Shown: in pieces, positions 5,731 through 33,893 of the stretch
Position numbering within the stretch: the first letter of the stretch is position 1
Layout: the number at the start of each line of letters is the position of its first letter
DNA from: Flavobacterium saccharophilum
GTDB lineage: Bacteria; Bacteroidota; Bacteroidia; Flavobacteriales; Flavobacteriaceae
DNA: 64,000 nucleotides
NCBI RefSeq assembly: GCF_900142735.1
Contig: NZ_FRBY01000005.1
Coordinates: 496,001 to 560,000, forward strand
Reading direction: 5' to 3'
Made by a program: the position numbers and the translations under genes
The notes under the pieces: generated by a model
The model's input: only the letters and a program-made list of their open reading frames with translations
The model's database searches: none
What the model was told of the DNA's origin: nothing

Positions 5731-7887
5731 TTAAGCGTTACCTTTTGCTTTTTTAATTACAGCTTCTGAAATATTAGAAGGTGTTTCTGCATAGTGAGAA
5801 AACTCCATTGTTGAAGTCGCTCTACCAGAAGATAATGTTCTTAACGTTGTTACATATCCAAACATCTCTGATAAAGGCACATCAGCTTTAATAGTTTTAG
5901 CACCGTTTCTGTCACCCATGTCATTAACCTGACCTCTACGACGGTTGATATCACCTACGATATCTCCCATGTTTTCCTCAGGAGTAATAACTTCCATTTT
6001 CATGATTGGCTCCAAAATAATCGCACCAGCAGCCTTAGCTACCTCTCTATAACCCATTCTTGCAGCTAATTCAAAAGAAAGAGCATCAGAATCGACAGGG
6101 TGGAAAGATCCATCCGTCAAAGTTACTTTCAAACTATCCACTTGATAACCTGCCAATGGACCAGTTTTCATAGCTTCACGGAAACCTTTTTCTACAGAAG
6201 GGATATATTCTTTAGGAACGTTACCACCTTTTACTGCATTAATAAACTGTAATCCAACAGGAACTTTACCATCAACTTCGTCAGCTGGCTCAAGTGTAAA
6301 TACGATATCACCGAATTTACCACGACCTCCTGATTGTTTTTTGTAAGTCTCTCTGTGTGTTGCAGTTCTTGTAAACGCTTCTTTATACTCAACTTGAGGC
6401 TCACCTTGGTTTACTTCAACTTTAAATTCACGTTTCATACGATCAACTAAGATATCCAAGTGAAGCTCACCCATACCAGAAATAATAGTTTGCCCTGAAG
6501 CCTCATCTGTTCTAACAGTAAATGTTGGATCTTCTTCAGCTAATTTAGCCAAAGCCATACCCATTTTATCAACGTCAGCTTTAGTTTTAGGCTCAATAGC
6601 AATACCAATTACCGGCGCCGGGAATTTCATAGACTCAAGAATGATTGGGTGTTTTTCATCACACAATGTATCTCCAGTTTTAATATCTTTAAATCCAACA
6701 GCAGCCCCAATATCTCCAGCCTCAATGTATTCGATTGGATTTTGCTTGTTAGCGTGCATTTGGTAGATACGAGAAATTCTTTCTTTACTTCCTGAACGAG
6801 TGTTCAAAACATAAGAACCAGCATCCAAACGTCCAGAGTAAGCACGGAAGAAAGCTAAACGACCAACGAATGGGTCAGTAGCAATTTTAAATGCCAAAGC
6901 AGCGAACGGCTCTTTTACGTCCGGACGACGTAAGATTTTAGTTTGATCTTCTTCTAATAACTCAGCATCATCAGGATGAATTCCTTCAATACCTTCCTTA
7001 TCCATTGGAGAAGGCAAATATTTACAAACCGCATCTAACATGAATTGAACTCCTTTGTTTTTGAAAGAAGAACCAGCGATCATCGGAATGATAGCCATAT
7101 CCATGGTAGCAGCTCTTAAAGCGTTGTTGATCTCTTCTTCTGTAATAGAGTTTTCATCTTCCATGAATTTCTCTAAAAGATTTTCATCATAATCAGCAAC
7201 TGCTTCAATAAGAATAGATCTGTACTCTTTAACCTCTGCAACCATATCAGCAGGAATTTCAACAATATCAAAAGTCGCCCCTTGAGTTGCATCATGCCAA
7301 ATGATAGCTTGGTTTTTTACTAAATCTACAACACCTTTGAAATCATTCTCTTCACCAATTGGCAAAGTGATCGCAACAGCATTTGATTTCAACATATCAC
7401 GAACTTGTTGACAAACTGCCAAAAAGTTAGATCCTTGACGGTCCATTTTATTAACAAATCCCATACGTGGAACTCTATATTGATCAGCAAGTCTCCAGTT
7501 AGTTTCTGATTGAGGCTCAACACCATCAACAGCACTAAACAAGAAAACTAAACCATCAAGTACACGTAAAGAACGGTTTACCTCTACAGTAAAGTCAACG
7601 TGTCCAGGAGTATCAATAATATTAAAGTGATATGGCAATGATTCAGGCAAAAGCTTACCTTGCTCAGTTGGAAAATTCCACTCACAAGTTGTTGCAGCCG
7701 AAGTAATTGTAATACCTCTTTCTTGCTCTTGAGCCATCCAGTCCATTGTTGCAGCACCATCGTGCACTTCACCAATTTTATGCGACTTTCCAGTATAAAA
7801 AAGGATACGCTCAGTTGTTGTTGTTTTACCAGCATCAATGTGAGCAGCAATTCCGATATTTCTTGTATATTTTAAATCTCTAGCCAT
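5731..7887 (-). CDS. fusA: Translation elongation factor G
   Basis: EF-G is the GTPase that drives translocation and, with RRF, ribosome recycling in the cytoplasm. The 718-residue product has the P-loop AHIDAGKT at residues 15-22, the DTPGHVDF and NKMD GTPase motifs, and the C-terminal domains ending before IKKAKGNA. Full length for the family, in one copy in this window. It lies between rpsG and rpsJ with gaps of 10 and 11 bases, clearly cotranscribed. Confidence 0.98.
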
Positions 7888-25591: not shown

Positions 25592-28500
25592 ATGAAAAGT
25601 ATCTTATTTGTTTTCTTATTATTCACCACAGCCTTATTTGCACAACAAACGGATAAAAAATGGATTAAAGTTGCATCCTATGAAAATGAAGGTAAAATAA
25701 AATCAGCAAACAAAATCGTTGACCAAATCTACAAGAAAGCGGTAAACAGGAAAGATGAAGTTCAAATGATAAAATGCTTTTTTTATCACTCAAAATATCT
25801 TCAGGTTGTTGATGAAAATGCAAAGACAAAGATCTTAAAAAATCTTAAAACCGATATTAATCGGGTTTCAATTCCATCAAAAGCAATTTTGAATTTGATT
25901 TATGCGAAATGCTTAAGTAATTACTCTAATTATGATTATGCTGTCATGGTTATTGACAGTGCTGCAACAGTTGTAGAAGAAGCGGCATATGCTGTAGCAG
26001 ATAGTGTTGAAATTCCTTCATCTCAGGATTATATTAGTCCGCCAACTGAATTTACAGCCGAAAAAGAAGTTCTTGCAACTCTCGAAAAAACATTAGAAAA
26101 CGAATCAATTCTAAAAACTACTCCACTCACAAATTATCAGGCAATCTTTGATTTTTTGTCTTTAGAGAAACTAAAAAACGAAAACTTATACAATTATCTG
26201 CTAAAAGAAAATATCGAGTTTTTTACTCAAAAAATAGAACGATGGCAAATACAAAATAGCGAAATCGCAGTACATAAAAATGAACTATTAGGAAGTTCAG
26301 AAACATTTTTGAAACTTGACTTGAATTTTATAAAAGATGAGAACCTTAGAAAGGTTATAACTTTATATCAGAAGTTAGAATTAAGTAATCCTTCTTTGGA
26401 AAATCAATTTAACCGAATTACATTTTGCAGTGATTTTATAACAGAATCTATTGAGGATTTAAACAAGTACTTGAATGAACTTCAACAACAGACCAATGAC
26501 ACAATTCTTACACAAAAAATTCTCCTAAAAAAGGCTGAGCTTCTACTTACTCAAGCTTCAAAAGAATTACATCCTGATTATAAAGTTGAGGCTGTCAAAA
26601 TATATGACAATATTATAAAGATCAATGATAAAACTAACGCAGCTCAAAGTGCTCTACAGCAAAAACAAAACGTTGTTGCTAAATCATTGGATGTCCGCCT
26701 TCAAAAATACAGTTATAATAAAGAAAATACCAGAGCTTTTATCAACTATAAAAACATTGATAACTTAAAGATATCATTTTACAAAATAGATCAAAAGACC
26801 CTAAAAAAATTTTCAGCCTCAGAATTAATTCTTAAACAAGATAGTTTAACTGAGGTAATTATAAAATCCCAAAGTAAAATTGCTACCCAAGATTATCAGC
26901 TTCAAAACAAAAAAGATTATTTTGAATATACCACAGAAGTTCTCCTACCCCAATTAGAAACAGGAAGCTATTTAGTTTATTTTGAAAGCGATTCCGGATT
27001 AAAAGACAAAAAAGCTTTTGCACATGAAACTATGACAGTTTCAAATTTAAGTATTCTGGCCTCACAAGGAGACAACAAAGAAAACTTTCAGGTTATAGAT
27101 CGAAAAACAGGAAAACCTCTGGAAAATGTATCTATAAAATCATCATATTATACACTTAAAACAGATTCAAACGGTTTAGCGTCCTATATTGGAAAGAATA
27201 ACTACTCTTACAATGATCAAATTGAATTTACCTTAGAGAATGATACTATTTTACCAGACCGGAATTATATTCGCTATACTCAGCAATATACCACTAACGA
27301 AAAGAAGATTTTAACCGCTAAAGTCGAATTTTATTTGGATCGGGCGATTTACCGTCCGGGACAAACTGTCTTTTACAAAGGAATTGCAATTCAAAAGCAA
27401 GAAAACAAAACAAGCATTGTTGCCAATACTCCTTTTACAATCATACTTAAAGATGCTAATTATCAAAATCTTAAAGAATTTGAAATTACCACAAATGAAT
27501 TTGGTTCATTTTACGGAGAATTCGTTTTACCAAAAAATGGCTTAACCGGTAATTTCAATATTTATGTTAAAAGACCTGAAGGTTATGCAACAGGAGACAT
27601 TTATACAAAGAACAAAGCCAGCGAATCGTTCTGGAAAACTGTTATCCTTGAAAGTTTTGGAATTAACTTTAGAGTTGAAGAATACAAACGTCCAAAATTT
27701 AAAGTAGATTTTGATCCTAAAAAAGAGAGCTTTCAAGTAAATCAGTCGATTAAAGTAAACGGAACAGCAAAAGCATTTGCAGGTAGCAATATTTCTGATG
27801 CAAAAGTGACTTATACTGTAAATCGTTTTACAAGTTATTTTAGAAATTATTACGGACAGGAACAAAATGAAACTATTGCAACGGGCGAAACCAAAACAGA
27901 TGCCTCCGGGAAATTTGTCATTGAATTTATAGCCAAACCTTCAAAAAATGCAATAAAAGAACAATTGCCTGTTTTTAATTACAGAATAACGGCTGATGTT
28001 ACTGATATTAATGGAGAAACCCACACATCAGAAACCATAGTAAAAGTAGGTTATCATGATTTGATTATCAATGCAAGTATTCCAGATCGCATTGAAACTA
28101 AAAACAAAAATGAGATCATCCTCACAAGTTCCAACTTAAACGGAGAATTTTTAGCTGCTAAAGGTGAAATTAAATTGTATTTCGTCGCTCCATTTAGAAA
28201 TAAATTCAAAGAACAAGTTTGGCCAAAACCAGAAATCGAAACTATTTCAACCTCTGATTTTGAACGATTATTTCCTTATGAAATCCGTGAAATTAAAACT
28301 GATAAAAAAAGTGAAATTTTATTATTCTCAAAGAAAATAGATACCGAAAAAGACAAAAAAATAGCTTTAGATTTTATTTCGAATTATAAATCCGGAAATT
28401 ATAAAATTGTTTTTTCGGCAAAAGATACTTTTAATAATCCTATAGAATCTGTTTCAACTTTTGAAATCAAACAAAGCAAAGACAAGTTTAATCCGGGTAA

Positions 28501-31500
28501 ATTATTTACTGCCGAACAAATTAATAGTGATCCTAAAAAAGACGGTTTTGTCGAAGTCAAACTTTCTTCTGTAATTCCAGATCTTTATATAACTACAAAC
28601 GGAAACTATGGGAATCAGATCTATTTTGAAAATACCTATCATTTACAAAACAATGAAGTAACAATCAAAATTCCGCTAAAAAAAGAATTTGAAAAAGCAA
28701 TGCGTTTGGGTTTTCAAAGCATTTTTGAGAACGAAATTTTTAATGATGAAATAGACGTTCCTTTAAAAACGGCGGAATCTAAACTAGAATTGATTGTTGA
28801 AAGTTTTAGAAATAAGATCGAACCTGGAAGTACTGAGAAATGGTCTTTTAAATTAAAATCCATCAACGCTAAGACTGAGGCAGAAGTGTTAGCATCAATG
28901 TATGATAGTTCTTTAGATCAGTTTACTGAGAGAGATTGGAATATTTTAAATATCAATAATTACCGCTACAATTCCTCCAATCTTAAATCTGGTTTAGGAT
29001 TTGAAAAAATAAATGCTTCAATAGAAAACCTGGATGAAGATCTAACATTTAGTAAATTTTATAAAGAAGAAACAAAATTAAACTGGTTTGGCTTTGATTT
29101 TTACGATAGTCGATATGGAGATTCACTGGGCTTAACAATAGCAGAAATTAAAGATAAAAAAGTAGGTAGTGAAACTATTAAAGGAGATCCTGATGCTGTT
29201 TTAACTGTTGATGAGCCTGTTGGAGTTGGCGCTGCGGCTGCAGTAGTTCAGGAAGATAATCAAGTTTATAATACGGCAGCAGCACCAGCTTATTTAGCTG
29301 GACGAGCTCCAGGAATTCAAATCAGAGGTAAGGCAAGCATAGGTGGGCTAGACCCACTTTATATTGTAGATGGAGAAATTGTTGTGGACATTAAAAACAT
29401 AAATCCCGCAGACATTCTTTCAATGGATGTTTTAAAAGATGCGGCAGCAACTGCAATTTACGGAAGCAGAGCAGCAAACGGCGTCATAATCATAACAACC
29501 AAAAAAGCCCTTGAAGCCTTAACCCAAGTGAAAGCTAGAAAAAACCTGTCTGAAACTGCTTTCTTTTTACCTAATTTAAAAACAGACGCCAACGGAAAAG
29601 TAAGCTTCAATTTTACTTCACCGGAAGCCTTAACGGCTTGGAAACTTCGATTATTGGCACACAACAAAGATGCTGTTTCAGGTTATTTGGAGAAAAGTGT
29701 AGTAACTCAAAAAGAATTAATGCTATTGCCGAATTTCCCTCGCTTCTTTAGAGAGAAAGATACTATCGTTATCTCAGCTAAAATTTCGAATGTTACTGAT
29801 AAAGCAAAAAGTGGAATCGCAATCTTGCAATTTTTTGATGCTGTAACCATGCAGCCAATTGATGTTAAAATGGGGAACACAAAAAATGTTCGAAATTTCA
29901 ATGTTGGTGCTTTCGGAAATACAACGGCGAGTTGGACGATTTCAATTCCGGAAGGTTTGCAAGGCCTTCAATATAAAATTTTGGCAAAATCTGGCGATTT
30001 CTCTGATGGAGAAGAAAATATACTTCCGGTTTTAACGAACAATATGCTGGTTACAGAAAGTATTCCGATTTGGGTTCGTGAGAATTCAACGAAAGAATAT
30101 ACGTTTGAGAATCTAAAAAACAATACTTCTTCGACTTTAAGAAACCATCAGTTTACATTGGAATATACGTCAAATCCGACGTGGATTGCGATTCAGTCTT
30201 TGCCTTATTTAATGGAATACGAACATGAGTGTGCTGAACAGACTTTTGCCCGTTTTTATTCGAATGCTTTGGCTTCAGAAATTATTTCTAGTAATCCGAA
30301 GATTGCAACTGTTTTTGAAGACTGGAGAAAAAATGCAAAATTGAACTCAAAATTAGAAGAAAACGAAGAATTAAAATCGATTATTTTGGCCGAAACGCCT
30401 TGGCTAAATGATGCCCAAAGTGAAGACGAAAAGAAAAAGAATTTAGCACTTCTATTTGATTTAGAAAAAATGAAAACTTCGCAAGAAGCTACTTTCGAGA
30501 AATTAAAACAAAAGCAAAATCCATCCGGAGGATTTGCATGGTTTACCGGAGGCAACGAAAGCGAATACATTACCCGACATATTCTGGCTGGCTTAGGTCA
30601 TCTATCCAAACTGAATAAAAGAGAAGATACTAACACAAAAATTGATGCAATTGCCAAAACCGGAATTCCGTTTCTGGATAATAAATTCCTGGAATATTAT
30701 AAAGGTCAGACGAAAAACTTAAAAGCAACTGATAAACTTATATGGATCAATCCTTATTCTGATTTGCACTATCTATATACCAGAAGTTTTTATGTAGACC
30801 AATATCCGCTTTCAGATACTTTAAAAAAGGCAACTAAATTGTATTTGAAAACGGCTAAAAAAGATTGGCTTTCGTATTCTCTTTACGAAAAAGGTTTAGC
30901 TGCATTAGCTTTAAATCGTTTTGGAGAAAGTGATTCGGCTAAAAAAATTATTGAAAGTTTAAAAGAAACTTCTTCTAATAATGAAGATTGGGGAATGTAT
31001 TGGATTGCCAATAAAGCAGGCTGGTACTGGTATCAGGCTCCAATTGAAACTCAGGCTCTGTTGATTGAGGCTTTCGCCGAAGTGAATCACGATACCAAAT
31101 CAGTAGATGCAATGAAAGTCTGGTTGTTAAAAAATAAACAGACCAAAAACTGGCCTACTACAAAATCAACTACCGAAGCCATTTATGCTTTATTAATGCA
31201 AGGAAATGATTGGCTTTCTGTAAAAGACAATACCATTATTAAAATTGGAGATCAAAAAATCCTGACTAAAAAATTATCTCAAAACGAAAAAGAAGCAGAA
31301 ACCGGATATATCAAAATGAACTGGAAAGCTGATGAAGTTAAAAAAGAAATGGCTTCTATAAATATTCAGAACAAATCAAAAGTTCCTGGATTTGGTGGTG
31401 TGTACTGGCAATATTTTGAAGATTTAGATAAAATCAAAACTAATTCAGGAGGTGTTTTATTCGTTTCGAAAGAATTATATTTAAAAAAGAATTCTATGAA

Positions 31501-31873
31501 AGGTGATCAATTAGAAAGAATTACATCAAAAAATTCTTTAAAAACGGGAGACTTAGTTACAGTAAGATTGATTATTACTTCGAAAGAAGATACAGAATAT
31601 GTTCACTTAAAAGATATGAGAGCTTCTTGTTTTGAACCTGTAAATGTACTTTCAGAATATCAATACAAAGATCGTTTAGGATATTATATGAGTACTAAAG
31701 ACGCTGCAACTCATTTCTTTTTTGACCGAATCAACAAAGGAACTTATGTATTAGAATATGATATTAGAGTAAATAACAGCGGAGAATTCTCGAACGGAAT
31801 TACAACAATTGAAAGTATGTATGCTCCGGAATTTTCAAGTCATACTAAAGGGATTCGAGTAAAGGTGAATTAA
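25592..31873 (+). CDS. Alpha-2-macroglobulin-family protein with inserted TonB plug domain
   Basis: A 2093-residue secreted protein with a signal peptide ending ALFAQ (residue 18). Visible in order: a helical N-terminal region (20-470), an MG2 domain with [13 protein letters not shown] near 580-592, further macroglobulin domains to about 1190, a SusC-like plug segment (about 1227-1305: [39 protein letters not shown]), the central A2M domain ([18 protein letters not shown] at 1324 on), the thioester site CAEQ (Cys1547, Gln1550) in a helical TED domain, and a C-terminal MG10-like domain. Bacterial A2M proteins trap proteases by covalent thioester capture. The plug has no barrel here. No partner PBP1C gene is adjacent. 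Confidence 0.88.
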
Positions 31874-31910
31874 AAAATCGTTAAAATAAATAACTAACAT
31901 TCTTCTATAT

Positions 31911-31935
31911 AATAAAGAATAAACCTTTATTTTAG
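31911..31935 (+). terminator. Weak hairpin after the macroglobulin gene
   Basis: AATAAAG (31911-31917) pairs with CTTTATT (31925-31931), followed by TTTAG. It is AT-only apart from one pair, so termination is uncertain. Confidence 0.3.
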
Positions 31936-31990
31936 TCAAATATAAGATTCATGCTTTGTCGAAGAAAATAAAAATATAAAGCCAGTTATT

Positions 31991-32869
31991 ATGTTTGAAA
32001 TGAAAATAGATTTTCCTAAAAAAATAACTTCGGAAGTCATTGGTTACGAAACATTAATACATTTTTATGAAAAAATGTCAACTATTCGTGATAGTAAAAT
32101 AGAAATAGACTTTAGGTATAACAATTGGTTTGAAGCAAACTTGTGTGCTATTTTTGGCGCGATGATTGAAGAGTTAGAAAATAAAGGAAATGAAATTTCT
32201 CTAATAAATATTAAAAACCCAAAAGATATCTTATCAAGAAATGGTTTTTTAACAAAATTTGGAGTTCACAAACCATTTGAAACTTATAATACAGAACTTG
32301 ATTATAAAACATTTAGTCATAAACAAGGAAAATCATTTTCATCATATATTGATAATGAAATATTAAAAAAGCAGGGCTTTCCTAAACTTTCAAAACTATT
32401 AAGCAAAAAAATTAATGAAAGCATTTTCGAACTATATGAAAATGCAAGAACTCACGGTGAATGTAAAAACATACATACTTGCGGGCAATACTTTCCAAGT
32501 AAAAAAATGCTTGATATAACAATTGTGGATATGGGACAAACCATTAAACACAATGTAAATAATTATAACAAAACAAACTGGTCAGGTAGCGATTGTATAG
32601 AATGGGCGACACAAGACAAAAACACAACAAAAACAGGTACAATTTCCGGTGGATTAGGGTTAGCTATAATTTTTGATTTTATAAAATTAAACAATGGTAA
32701 AATTCAAATAATTTCTTCTGATGGATATTGGGAATTGAGAAAAGGAACTGTATTTAAACAAAATCTAAATTTCACCTTTCATGGCACAATTGCTAATTTA
32801 GAATTTAATTTATCAGATACAAATGAATATATTCTTAAAGAAGAGATAGATTTGGATAATATTTTTTAA
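31991..32869 (+). CDS. GHKL-type ATPase with N-terminal STAS-like segment
   Basis: A 292-residue soluble protein. The C-terminal half is a histidine-kinase-like ATPase fold: N box ELYENARTHGE (147-157, with Asn151), G1 box VDMGQT (179-184), G2 box SGGLGLAII (219-227) and a final FHGTIANLEF (263-272). There is no H-box histidine or dimerisation helix, so it is not a classical sensor kinase but resembles anti-sigma kinases of the SpoIIAB/RsbW kind. Residues 36-75 (KIEIDFRYNNWFEANLCAIF onward) look like a STAS-like strand-helix. It is followed by a DUF4325 gene and a PIN gene. Base composition is more AT-rich than neighbours, suggesting acquisition. Function unproven. Confidence 0.8.
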   Translation: MFEMKIDFPKKITSEVIGYETLIHFYEKMSTIRDSKIEIDFRYNNWFEANLCAIFGAMIEELENKGNEISLINIKNPKDILSRNGFLTKFGVHKPFETYNTELDYKTFSHKQGKSFSSYIDNEILKKQGFPKLSKLLSKKINESIFELYENARTHGECKNIHTCGQYFPSKKMLDITIVDMGQTIKHNVNNYNKTNWSGSDCIEWATQDKNTTKTGTISGGLGLAIIFDFIKLNNGKIQIISSDGYWELRKGTVFKQNLNFTFHGTIANLEFNLSDTNEYILKEEIDLDNIF

Positions 32870-32874
32870 CTTTG
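32867..32874 (+). promoter_or_regulatory. Possible internal -7 box for the STAS-like and PIN genes
   Basis: TAACTTTG fits TAnnTTTG exactly and its first three bases are the stop codon of the ATPase gene. No TTG lies at the right distance upstream, so the box is suggestive only. Confidence 0.4.
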
Positions 32875-32886
32875 CACACTTTATTT

Positions 32887-33246
32887 ATGGTAATTACAAT
32901 GGGAAATATAAAAATTAACGAAGTTATTGGTGGAAACTTTGCTGTTACGACTGATGATGGAAACTTAGTTTTTAACCTTTTAGACAAAAATCTTGAAGAA
33001 CAGAAAAAAACTAAATTAGATTTTTCTGAAATTATCGTCTTAACTACTGCTTTTTTAAATGCAGCAATAGGTCAACTATATAGCAAATACAAAAGTGAAG
33101 AGATTGCACCTTATTTGAAATTGACAAATGTTGCTGATGAGGATAAAATTTTATTTAAAAAAGTAACTGAAAGAGCCAAAGAATATTTTGCAAACAAAGA
33201 AAGTTTTGAAAAAAACTCTAATGATGCGATAAATGGCAACGATTAA
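32887..33246 (+). CDS. STAS-like DUF4325 domain protein
   Basis: A 119-residue single-domain protein. The pattern KINEVIGGNFAVTTDDGNLV, then LDFSEIIVLTTAFLNAAIGQLY near residues 44-66, matches the STAS-like DUF4325 family, which is found next to GHKL ATPases and is thought of as an anti-anti-sigma-like partner. I start at the ATG at 32887; the ATG at 32899 (MGNIKINEV) is an equally good choice, and an upstream TTG at 32872 lies in the promoter-like box. Its last 14 bases overlap the PIN gene start, so the two are translationally coupled. Confidence 0.8.
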   Translation: MVITMGNIKINEVIGGNFAVTTDDGNLVFNLLDKNLEEQKKTKLDFSEIIVLTTAFLNAAIGQLYSKYKSEEIAPYLKLTNVADEDKILFKKVTERAKEYFANKESFEKNSNDAINGND

Positions 33247-33778
33247 TATAGAAACTTACAAAATTGTTTATACTGACCAATTTTTTTTTGACACAAATGT
33301 TTGGTTATTATTATTTGGAAATCTAGCTAACTATAAACCAAAAGATCAAAAAGAATATTCAAAATTATTTAAAGAATCTTTGCAGCGAGAAATTCCAATT
33401 TACATTTCCTCAATGATTTTATCTGAATTTGCTAATGTTCTATTAAGATTAGATTTCAAACAGTGGAAAACCAAGAACAACTTTGCTGAGAATAAAGATT
33501 TTAAGAAGGATTTTGGAATAACACAAGAATACAAAAATAGTATTCAGAACACCAAAAGTCTATTAAAATCAATTTTAGAACTTCCAAATATTCATCTAAT
33601 CTCAGATTTTTTTAATGGAATTAATATAGAAAATATTTTAAAAGATTTTGATACTGTTGATTTTAATGATTCCTATATTACTGAATTGGTAAGAAACAAT
33701 TATAAAGTTGTAACCAATGATAAAGATTTTCAAAAATTAGATTCTAAAATTGACATAATTACTACTCAGATACAATAA
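33233..33778 (+). CDS. PIN-domain nuclease-like protein
   Basis: A 181-residue protein with the PIN acidic residues in order: FFDTNVWLL (Asp20), ILSEFANVL (Glu65), DFNDSYI (Asp146) and VTNDKDF (Asp163). PIN domains are Mg-dependent RNases, best known as VapC toxins. At 181 residues it is longer than the usual 130-140 of VapC, with an inserted charged stretch (75-105). It has no VapB-like antitoxin; instead it overlaps the STAS-like gene by 14 bases and is the third gene of the ATPase-STAS-PIN cassette. A regulated RNase is the likeliest activity, by inference. Confidence 0.8.
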   Translation: MATINIETYKIVYTDQFFFDTNVWLLLFGNLANYKPKDQKEYSKLFKESLQREIPIYISSMILSEFANVLLRLDFKQWKTKNNFAENKDFKKDFGITQEYKNSIQNTKSLLKSILELPNIHLISDFFNGINIENILKDFDTVDFNDSYITELVRNNYKVVTNDKDFQKLDSKIDIITTQIQ

Positions 33779-33843
33779 ATTTTAAGCAAATTAAATCTAA
33801 ACTACTCTATTTAAAGATTTAAAATTAATAATAGCGCATAAAA

Positions 33844-33873
33844 AAACCCGATAGATTAAAATCTATCGGGTTT
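33844..33873 (-). terminator. Bidirectional terminator between PIN cassette and S46 peptidase
   Basis: Perfect 13-bp stem AAACCCGATAGAT/ATCTATCGGGTTT with a TAAA loop. On the minus strand it is followed by a T run, making it a strong terminator for the peptidase; on the plus side the run is TTTACTTT, weaker. Confidence 0.88.
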
Positions 33874-33893
33874 ACTTTATAAATAAATTCAGA

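What the first reader, a model, noticed from the sequence alone, without database searches (positions are those of the whole stretch)
31991..33778. Three-gene cassette: GHKL ATPase, STAS-like DUF4325 protein and PIN nuclease
Seen: an ATPase with N, G1 and G2 boxes but no histidine-kinase H box, a STAS-like partner, and a PIN protein with all four acidic residues. The second and third genes overlap by 14 bases and the first two are separated by under 30. Known: GHKL plus STAS pairs (SpoIIAB/SpoIIAA, RsbW/RsbV) work by partner switching; PIN proteins are RNases, often toxins. Inference: the pair may control a PIN RNase, giving a phosphorylation-gated toxin or anti-phage system instead of a sigma-factor switch. 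The cassette is more AT-rich than its neighbours and sits alone between two ordinary genes, as mobile defence modules often do.
Basis: partly seen in the sequence, partly recalled or inferred. Interest (0 to 1): 0.88.

Follow-up and report, generated by a model that had tools for sequence, protein, structure and literature searches.

The report
VapKSC kinase-gated RNase toxin cassette
The cassette looks like a three-gene bacterial alarm in which a kinase frees an RNA-cutting toxin from its partner protein; this kind was described in 2026, and close relatives of this copy appear to have swapped the RNA cutter for a known phage-starving enzyme.

Summary
Window 31991-33778 holds a GHKL kinase-like ATPase with an N-terminal STAS-like part, a DUF4325 STAS protein and a PIN protein with intact catalytic acids. 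In 73 of the 80 loci kept (of 261 found) by a STAS-seeded scan of bacterial and archaeal genomes all three genes stand together.

The system is already in print. PMC13373217 (EMBO J, June 2026) names it VapKSC and shows that VapS neutralises VapC, that a phosphomimetic VapS does not, and that the operon protects E. coli against one phage. Profiles of the window's family match PDB 9z7o (Escherichia VapS, VapC) at 3.7e-25 and 7.8e-16, the best PDB matches by far.

Not described there: three marine Flavobacteriaceae carry the same kinase-STAS pair directly behind an anti-phage dCTP deaminase gene and have no PIN gene. Their VapS lacks most of the tail that restrains VapC, and their kinases are sister to the window's kinase in the tree made. 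Four relatives show the empty site. This effector exchange is the part worth testing.

The parts
31991..32869 (+). vapK: 292-aa kinase-like protein, N-terminal STAS-like part (about residues 1-110) and C-terminal GHKL ATPase (N box E147/N151, G1 D180-x-G182, G2 G221-x-G223)
32899..33246 (+). vapS: 115-aa STAS-like (DUF4325) antitoxin; Thr50 aligns with the regulatory Ser48 of Escherichia VapS; 65-residue stretch after it includes the C-terminal tail (annotated ORF may start at TTG 32872)
33233..33778 (+). vapC: 181-aa PIN-domain RNase; Asp20 aligns with Asp28 of Escherichia VapC
31874..33893 (.). Stretch between the two flanking genes that carries the cassette here and in two relatives, and is only about 86-191 bases and cassette-free in four others

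Best explanation
The cassette is a vapKSC operon. At rest VapS (STAS) binds VapC (PIN RNase) and keeps it inactive. A signal, probably single-stranded DNA produced by phage attack or DNA damage, activates VapK. VapK phosphorylates Thr50 of VapS, VapS releases VapC, and VapC cuts RNA (tRNA or rRNA), so growth stops and the phage is limited. Shown in sequence: gene order, intact motifs, membership of the family. Shown by others for the Escherichia copy: VapC is toxic, VapS neutralises it, S48E or loss of the tail abolishes this, and phage protection needs VapC D28, VapS S48 and VapK F54. Inferred for this copy: every activity, the ssDNA signal and the RNA target.
For: Fixed gene order and strand in 73 of 80 kept genome loci, 13 of 16 viral loci (with duplicates) and 14 of 16 of L001-L016. 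VapS and VapC profiles match 9z7o at 3.7e-25 and 7.8e-16. Ser/Thr at the phosphosite in 45 of 46 kinase-found VapS; seven PIN positions identical in 34 of 34. SpoIIAB is the first Foldseek match of the kinase model. Published tests of the Escherichia operon (PMC13373217, section 13).
Against: No experiment on this copy. The authors themselves could not test VapK activity or ssDNA sensing. The residue equivalent to VapK F54 could not be placed, because the Escherichia VapK was not found. The VapS model has only weak structural matches (best RsbV, E 0.24). Distant kinase relatives often lack PIN: 21 of 40 Bacteroidota regions have no PIN hit, so the kinase does not always serve VapC. The window copy has no other defence gene near it.
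Confidence: 0.9

Rival explanations
1. A classical partner switch (SpoIIAB/SpoIIAA or RsbW/RsbV type) that controls a sigma factor, with the PIN gene a chance neighbour.
For: GHKL plus STAS make-up; SpoIIAB is the first Foldseek match of the kinase model; RsbV is the best, weak match of VapS.
Against: The PIN gene follows in 73 of 80 kept genome loci, across many phyla; 9z7o shows VapS bound to VapC (PMC13373217; sequence match).
Confidence: 0.03
2. A CapKS-like transcription regulator of a neighbouring immune operon.
For: CapK and CapS are the nearest characterised relatives named in PMC13373217.
Against: By that paper CapK begins with an HTH and CapS ends with a winged HTH (184 residues); window VapK (292 aa) starts directly with the STAS-like part and window VapS has 115 aa, and neither gave an HTH match in Pfam.
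Confidence: 0.02
3. An RNase toxin-antitoxin operon of this kind that serves general stress control or its own upkeep, not phage defence.
For: The window copy stands alone without other defence genes; toxin-antitoxin operons often persist by addiction (recalled); the paper itself calls the line between stress response and immunity fuzzy.
Against: About 2-log protection against phage Bas42 by the Escherichia operon; 36% of 289 operons lie within 10 kb of another immune gene (paper); phage and plasmid copies; the same kinase-STAS pair beside an anti-phage dCTP deaminase.
Confidence: 0.2
4. A decayed, inactive copy.
For: Low GC and a stand-alone place.
Against: All three frames open and catalytic residues intact; intact copies at the same site in two more species, kinase identity 98% and 85%.
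Confidence: 0.03

Closest known systems
VapKSC (Escherichia sp. E4736; PMC13373217; VapS-VapC in PDB 9z7o)
   Same: Three genes in the same order; STAS-GHKL kinase, short STAS antitoxin with Ser/Thr at the regulatory position and a C-terminal tail, PIN RNase with the same acidic residues
   Different: Distant in sequence; Thr50 in place of Ser48 (the paper allows Ser or Thr); chromosomal Flavobacterium copy alone at a site that is empty in four relatives
CapK/CapS immune-operon regulators (PMC13373217)
   Same: STAS-GHKL kinase and STAS substrate, same proposed ssDNA signal
   Different: By the paper CapK has an HTH and CapS a winged HTH and they control transcription; both parts are missing here
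SpoIIAB/SpoIIAA and RsbW/RsbV partner switches
   Same: GHKL kinase fold (SpoIIAB first) and phosphorylated STAS protein
   Different: Sigma factor as target; no STAS-like part in the kinase (recalled); here a PIN RNase is the third partner
VapBC toxin-antitoxin
   Same: PIN RNase toxin held by an antitoxin
   Different: VapB is a DNA-binding antitoxin (recalled and PMC3834315 abstract); VapS is a STAS protein that does not displace the metal ion
Anti-phage dCTP deaminase (PADLOC dCTPase)
   Same: In L034, L038 and L040 it stands directly before a VapK-VapS pair
   Different: Not in the window; 5 of 6 hits in 349 Flavobacteriaceae genomes have no VapK/VapS within the 1.5 kb seen on each side

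Membership tests
VapKSC | Co-directional operon kinase, STAS protein, PIN protein | tested here: met
VapKSC | VapK with STAS and GHKL parts and no HTH | tested here: met
   Model with two parts, STAS sequence match of the N-terminal part (0.0017), SpoIIAB match, GHKL boxes, no HTH in Pfam
VapKSC | VapS: STAS domain with absolutely conserved Ser/Thr | tested here: met
   Profile match to 9z7o_A 3.7e-25, Thr50 on Ser48; Ser/Thr in 45 of 46, one Val in distant L164. In the 80 loci Ser/Thr is required by the search pattern and proves nothing
VapKSC | VapS C-terminal tail that blocks VapC | tested here: met
   65 residues after Thr50 in the window, median 66 in 82 PIN-linked VapS, 68 in Escherichia VapS (from the lengths); modelled as a long helix, last residues at low confidence. 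Function not tested
VapKSC | VapC: PIN RNase with catalytic acids (D28) | tested here: met
   Profile match to 9z7o_C 7.8e-16, Asp20 on Asp28; seven positions identical in 34 of 34
VapKSC | Aromatic ssDNA contact in VapK (F54) | tested here: inconclusive
   Escherichia VapK not found. Residue 46 is F or W in 49 of 58 (Trp46 in the window) and is a candidate only
VapKSC | Phosphorylation of VapS by VapK, RNA cleavage, phage protection | not testable with these tools
   Needs experiments
CapK/CapS | HTH on the kinase and winged HTH on the STAS protein | tested here: not met
   No HTH match in either; VapS 115 aa
SpoIIAB/SpoIIAA-type switch | Sigma factor as the controlled partner | not testable with these tools
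   Needs binding tests; no sigma-factor match among the three proteins
VapBC | DNA-binding VapB antitoxin beside the PIN gene | tested here: not met
   The partner is a DUF4325 STAS-like protein

The most novel reading that the evidence does not exclude
VapK-VapS is a portable phospho-switch that can be refitted to different effectors. In Dokdonia, Mesoflavibacter and Tenacibaculum it has moved from the PIN RNase to an anti-phage dCTP deaminase, and VapS has lost most of the tail that blocks VapC. The same damage signal would then drain dCTP instead of cutting RNA. The window's kinase is sister to that clade in the tree made, so this cassette is a close PIN-linked cousin of the exchanged form.
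Probability: 0.5. Interest if true: 0.8.

Novelty: new member of a known kind. Interest (0 to 1): 0.45.

Why it matters
The window gives an intact Bacteroidota copy of a system described only in 2026, at a site that is empty in relatives. The wider point is effector exchange: if VapK-VapS can gate a dCTP deaminase as well as an RNase, then how the deaminase is switched on in these operons becomes testable by swapping and mutating two small genes, and kinase-STAS pairs become a handle for finding further effectors.

Tried and rejected
Wide kinase alignments could not be used for the collection scans; A5 gave one viral locus and the STAS alignment A6 was used instead. Sigma-factor switch, CapKS regulator and decay were considered and rejected (see rivals). 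Escherichia VapK was sought to place F54 and not found. Kinase-STAS pairs without PIN were inspected for other effectors; no consistent one emerged and no claim is made.

Defence neighbourhood: 140 flanking proteins (of 280 listed, after leaving out those over 700 aa) against 140 control proteins from 20 other stretches of trio-carrying or related Bacteroidota genomes (of 164). At 1e-20, 136 PADLOC models matched in the first set (25 shown: type I restriction-modification, AbiE, PDC-S02) and 20 in the second (HerA, RtcR and other broad models). The tool does not tell how many distinct proteins these are, and the first set spans several phyla, so this is only suggestive. Of 10 flanking proteins scanned singly, 7 had no match at 1e-10.

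Limits: the 80 genome loci are the best of 261 by similarity to the window VapS, which favours close relatives. L105 and L106 end just after vapS, so a missing PIN there means nothing; L029 ends inside vapS. L027 is the same phage as L013, L032 the same contig as L017, and L025 and L026 look like near-copies, so the viral count is inflated. PIN was counted at E below 0.01; the PIN of L162 and L167 is weak (5e-04, 1e-04). The kinase tree left out L026, L029, L030, L032, L033, L086, L088, L098, L103 and any protein under 240 aa, and did not hold the 85%-identical copy of G632; 47 of its 85 inner branches are well supported; L011, L012, L014 and L240 have long branches. The three dCTP-linked operons form one clade, so the tail loss is one event.

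Full report
OBSERVATION. Genes 2 and 3 overlap by 14 bases. Gene 2 is best started at the ATG at 32899, in line with homologues, giving 115 aa. Pfam gives DUF4325 (8.8e-13) and PIN (4.8e-06), and HATPase_c only weakly (0.00099, below its cut-off). PADLOC of 2023 gave one weak match, DrmA for gene 1 at 0.00056. PHROG 3364, a phage protein family of unknown function, matches residues 5-285 of gene 1 (4.8e-39).

KINSHIP AND ORDER. The kinase occurs in 12 of 299 genomes of the genus, the window's own included; 11 of these 12 loci have the trio and L012 only the pair. In the phylum 40 of 395 genomes match at E<=1e-10, distant members included; in the phylum of a Nitrosomonas locus 7 of 349 at E<=1e-12. 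A STAS-seeded scan of genome contigs found 261 relatives and kept the best 80. By profile, 73 of 80 have kinase, STAS and PIN; 3 have kinase, STAS and dCTP deaminase; 2 have kinase and STAS near a contig end; 1 has STAS and PIN; 1 has STAS alone. Of 40 regions fetched around kinase hits (37, 3), 19 have the trio, 8 a pair, 11 a kinase hit alone and 2 none by the refined profiles; four further places seen only as short loci (L117, L119, L121, L122) have the trio. The trio is thus usual for close kinase relatives and not for distant ones. It is also in Streptococcus phage Javan172 beside the integrase, where GenBank does not annotate the PIN gene, on a Deinococcus plasmid, and in archaeal records L062, L064, L084 and L100. 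The VapKSC paper speaks of diverse bacterial groups; in its main text the word archaea was found only in a reference.

KNOWN SYSTEM. PMC13373217 (sections 7, 13 and 14 read, passages of others) describes CapK/CapS and the operon vapKSC: 289 instances, 36% within 10 kb of another immune gene. Shown there: a 2:2 VapS-VapC crystal structure, VapC toxicity, neutralisation by VapS, loss of neutralisation on removing residues 94-116 or by S48E, and about 2-log protection against phage Bas42 that needs VapC D28, VapS S48 and VapK F54. Kinase activity and ssDNA sensing of VapK could not be tested by the authors. Profiles of the window's family match that structure, PDB 9z7o: VapS 3.7e-25 (next match 2e-05 to a repetitive designed protein) and VapC 7.8e-16, the only match at 0.01. 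Window Thr50 aligns with S48 and Asp20 with D28. The other literature searches (2 listed, 15 of 16, 15 of 77, 10 of 20) showed no other description of the trio in what was listed; passages of six further papers were seen, and none of those passages describes it. The library lacks most subscription journals and preprints.

STRUCTURE. The kinase model (pLDDT 93.7) has an N-terminal alpha/beta part and a GHKL part. Foldseek ranks SpoIIAB first (1l0o, E 2.1e-04, TM by target 0.67). By sequence, profile positions 21-92 match a STAS anti-sigma antagonist (0.0017). The VapS model (pLDDT 89.7) has only weak matches, the best RsbV (E 0.24). 9z7o is not among the 50 Foldseek rows shown; that library ends on 8 April 2026.

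RESIDUES. In loci found through the kinase, with VapS, VapC and VapK picked by the profiles, the phosphosite is S or T in 45 of 46 VapS (Val in L164), seven PIN positions are identical in 34 of 34, and N151, H155, D180 and G182 in 58 of 58 kinases. Kinase residue 46 is F or W in 49 of 58, which may be the ssDNA aromatic (F54 in VapK, W68 in CapK); that is inference.

SITE. The cassette stands between the same two flanking genes in two more genomes: G296 (kinase 98% identical) and G632 (85%). Of 25 relatives' loci with the downstream gene, four (L190, L191, L193, L201) show the upstream gene within the 1.5 kb seen and no cassette; 86 to 191 bases lie between the aligned gene ends there. In the remaining loci the upstream gene was not within the stretch seen, except one at about 7 kb. 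No att site or target duplication was identified. Cassette GC is 0.259 against 0.337.

EFFECTOR EXCHANGE. In Dokdonia pacifica (L034), Mesoflavibacter zeaxanthinifaciens (L038) and Tenacibaculum skagerrakense (L040) a gene for 678-684 aa lies directly before vapK on the same strand (gaps of 27 and 18 bases and an overlap of 47), and no PIN gene was found in the stretch. PADLOC calls it dCTPase at 9.3e-120, 1.3e-114 and 2.3e-118. A Geminocystis plasmid homologue at 36% identity is annotated anti-phage dCTP deaminase. P-loop, HAE and PCxxC motifs are present, and the flanking genes differ between the three. Their VapS keep the Thr but have 52, 54 and 52 residues after it, fewer than any of 82 PIN-linked VapS (59-82, median 66); the missing part lies in the region that the paper found necessary against VapC. 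In a tree of 88 kinases the three form one clade (100/99), the window's kinase is its sister (100/94), and Christiangramia and Lutibacter, both with PIN, lie next outside (100/96). This reads most simply as one exchange of PIN for deaminase; the root was set at the midpoint for drawing only. It is rare: in 349 Flavobacteriaceae genomes 6 carry the deaminase and one, whose protein is identical to that of L038, has VapK-VapS within the locus. In 395 genomes of the order a search with the L038 kinase at E<=1e-40 matched 6, all with PIN and none above 62% identity. The word deaminase was not found in the main text of the VapKSC paper, and none of the 10 papers listed (of 20) holds dCTP deaminase together with STAS or GHKL. 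That VapS controls the deaminase is inference.

VERDICT. The window cassette is a VapKSC operon, a new member of a known kind. The novelty lies in its close relatives.

Noticed in passing
L034:7030-10309, L038:7044-10315, L040:7074-10300: Operons of anti-phage dCTP deaminase, VapK and a short VapS without PIN in three genera, at different chromosomal places.
   Followed up: partly
L030:1087-3632 (viral contig): A distant kinase relative and a STAS protein with a 408-aa gene between them that has no Pfam or PADLOC match; perhaps another effector.
   Followed up: partly
L015:3655-7173 (Halobaculum marinum plasmid): A kinase relative and a small STAS-like ORF, preceded by a 665-aa gene with a weak nuclease-related (NERD) match, E 0.0021, below the cut-off.
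   Followed up: partly
L144, L145, L150, L156, L164, L174, L180, L241, L242: Distant kinase-STAS pairs with no PIN gene; L144 has a 153-aa gene with a probable membrane stretch overlapping the kinase by 4 bases.
   Followed up: partly
Francisella phage KIRK, Fhv_0046 to Fhv_0048 (table in PMC7924643, passage seen): A 293-aa unknown protein, a DUF4325 protein and a small membrane protein in a row beside the phage repressor; perhaps a kinase-STAS pair with a different partner. Sequence not seen.
   Followed up: no
L013:5956-7748 (Streptococcus phage Javan172): Complete vapKSC next to the integrase; the PIN ORF at 7218-7748 overlaps only a short hypothetical gene in the GenBank annotation.
   Followed up: partly
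window 25592-31873: The alpha-2-macroglobulin-like neighbour seems to carry a stretch like the plug of TonB-dependent (SusC-type) receptors inside it (read by eye; names recalled).
   Followed up: no
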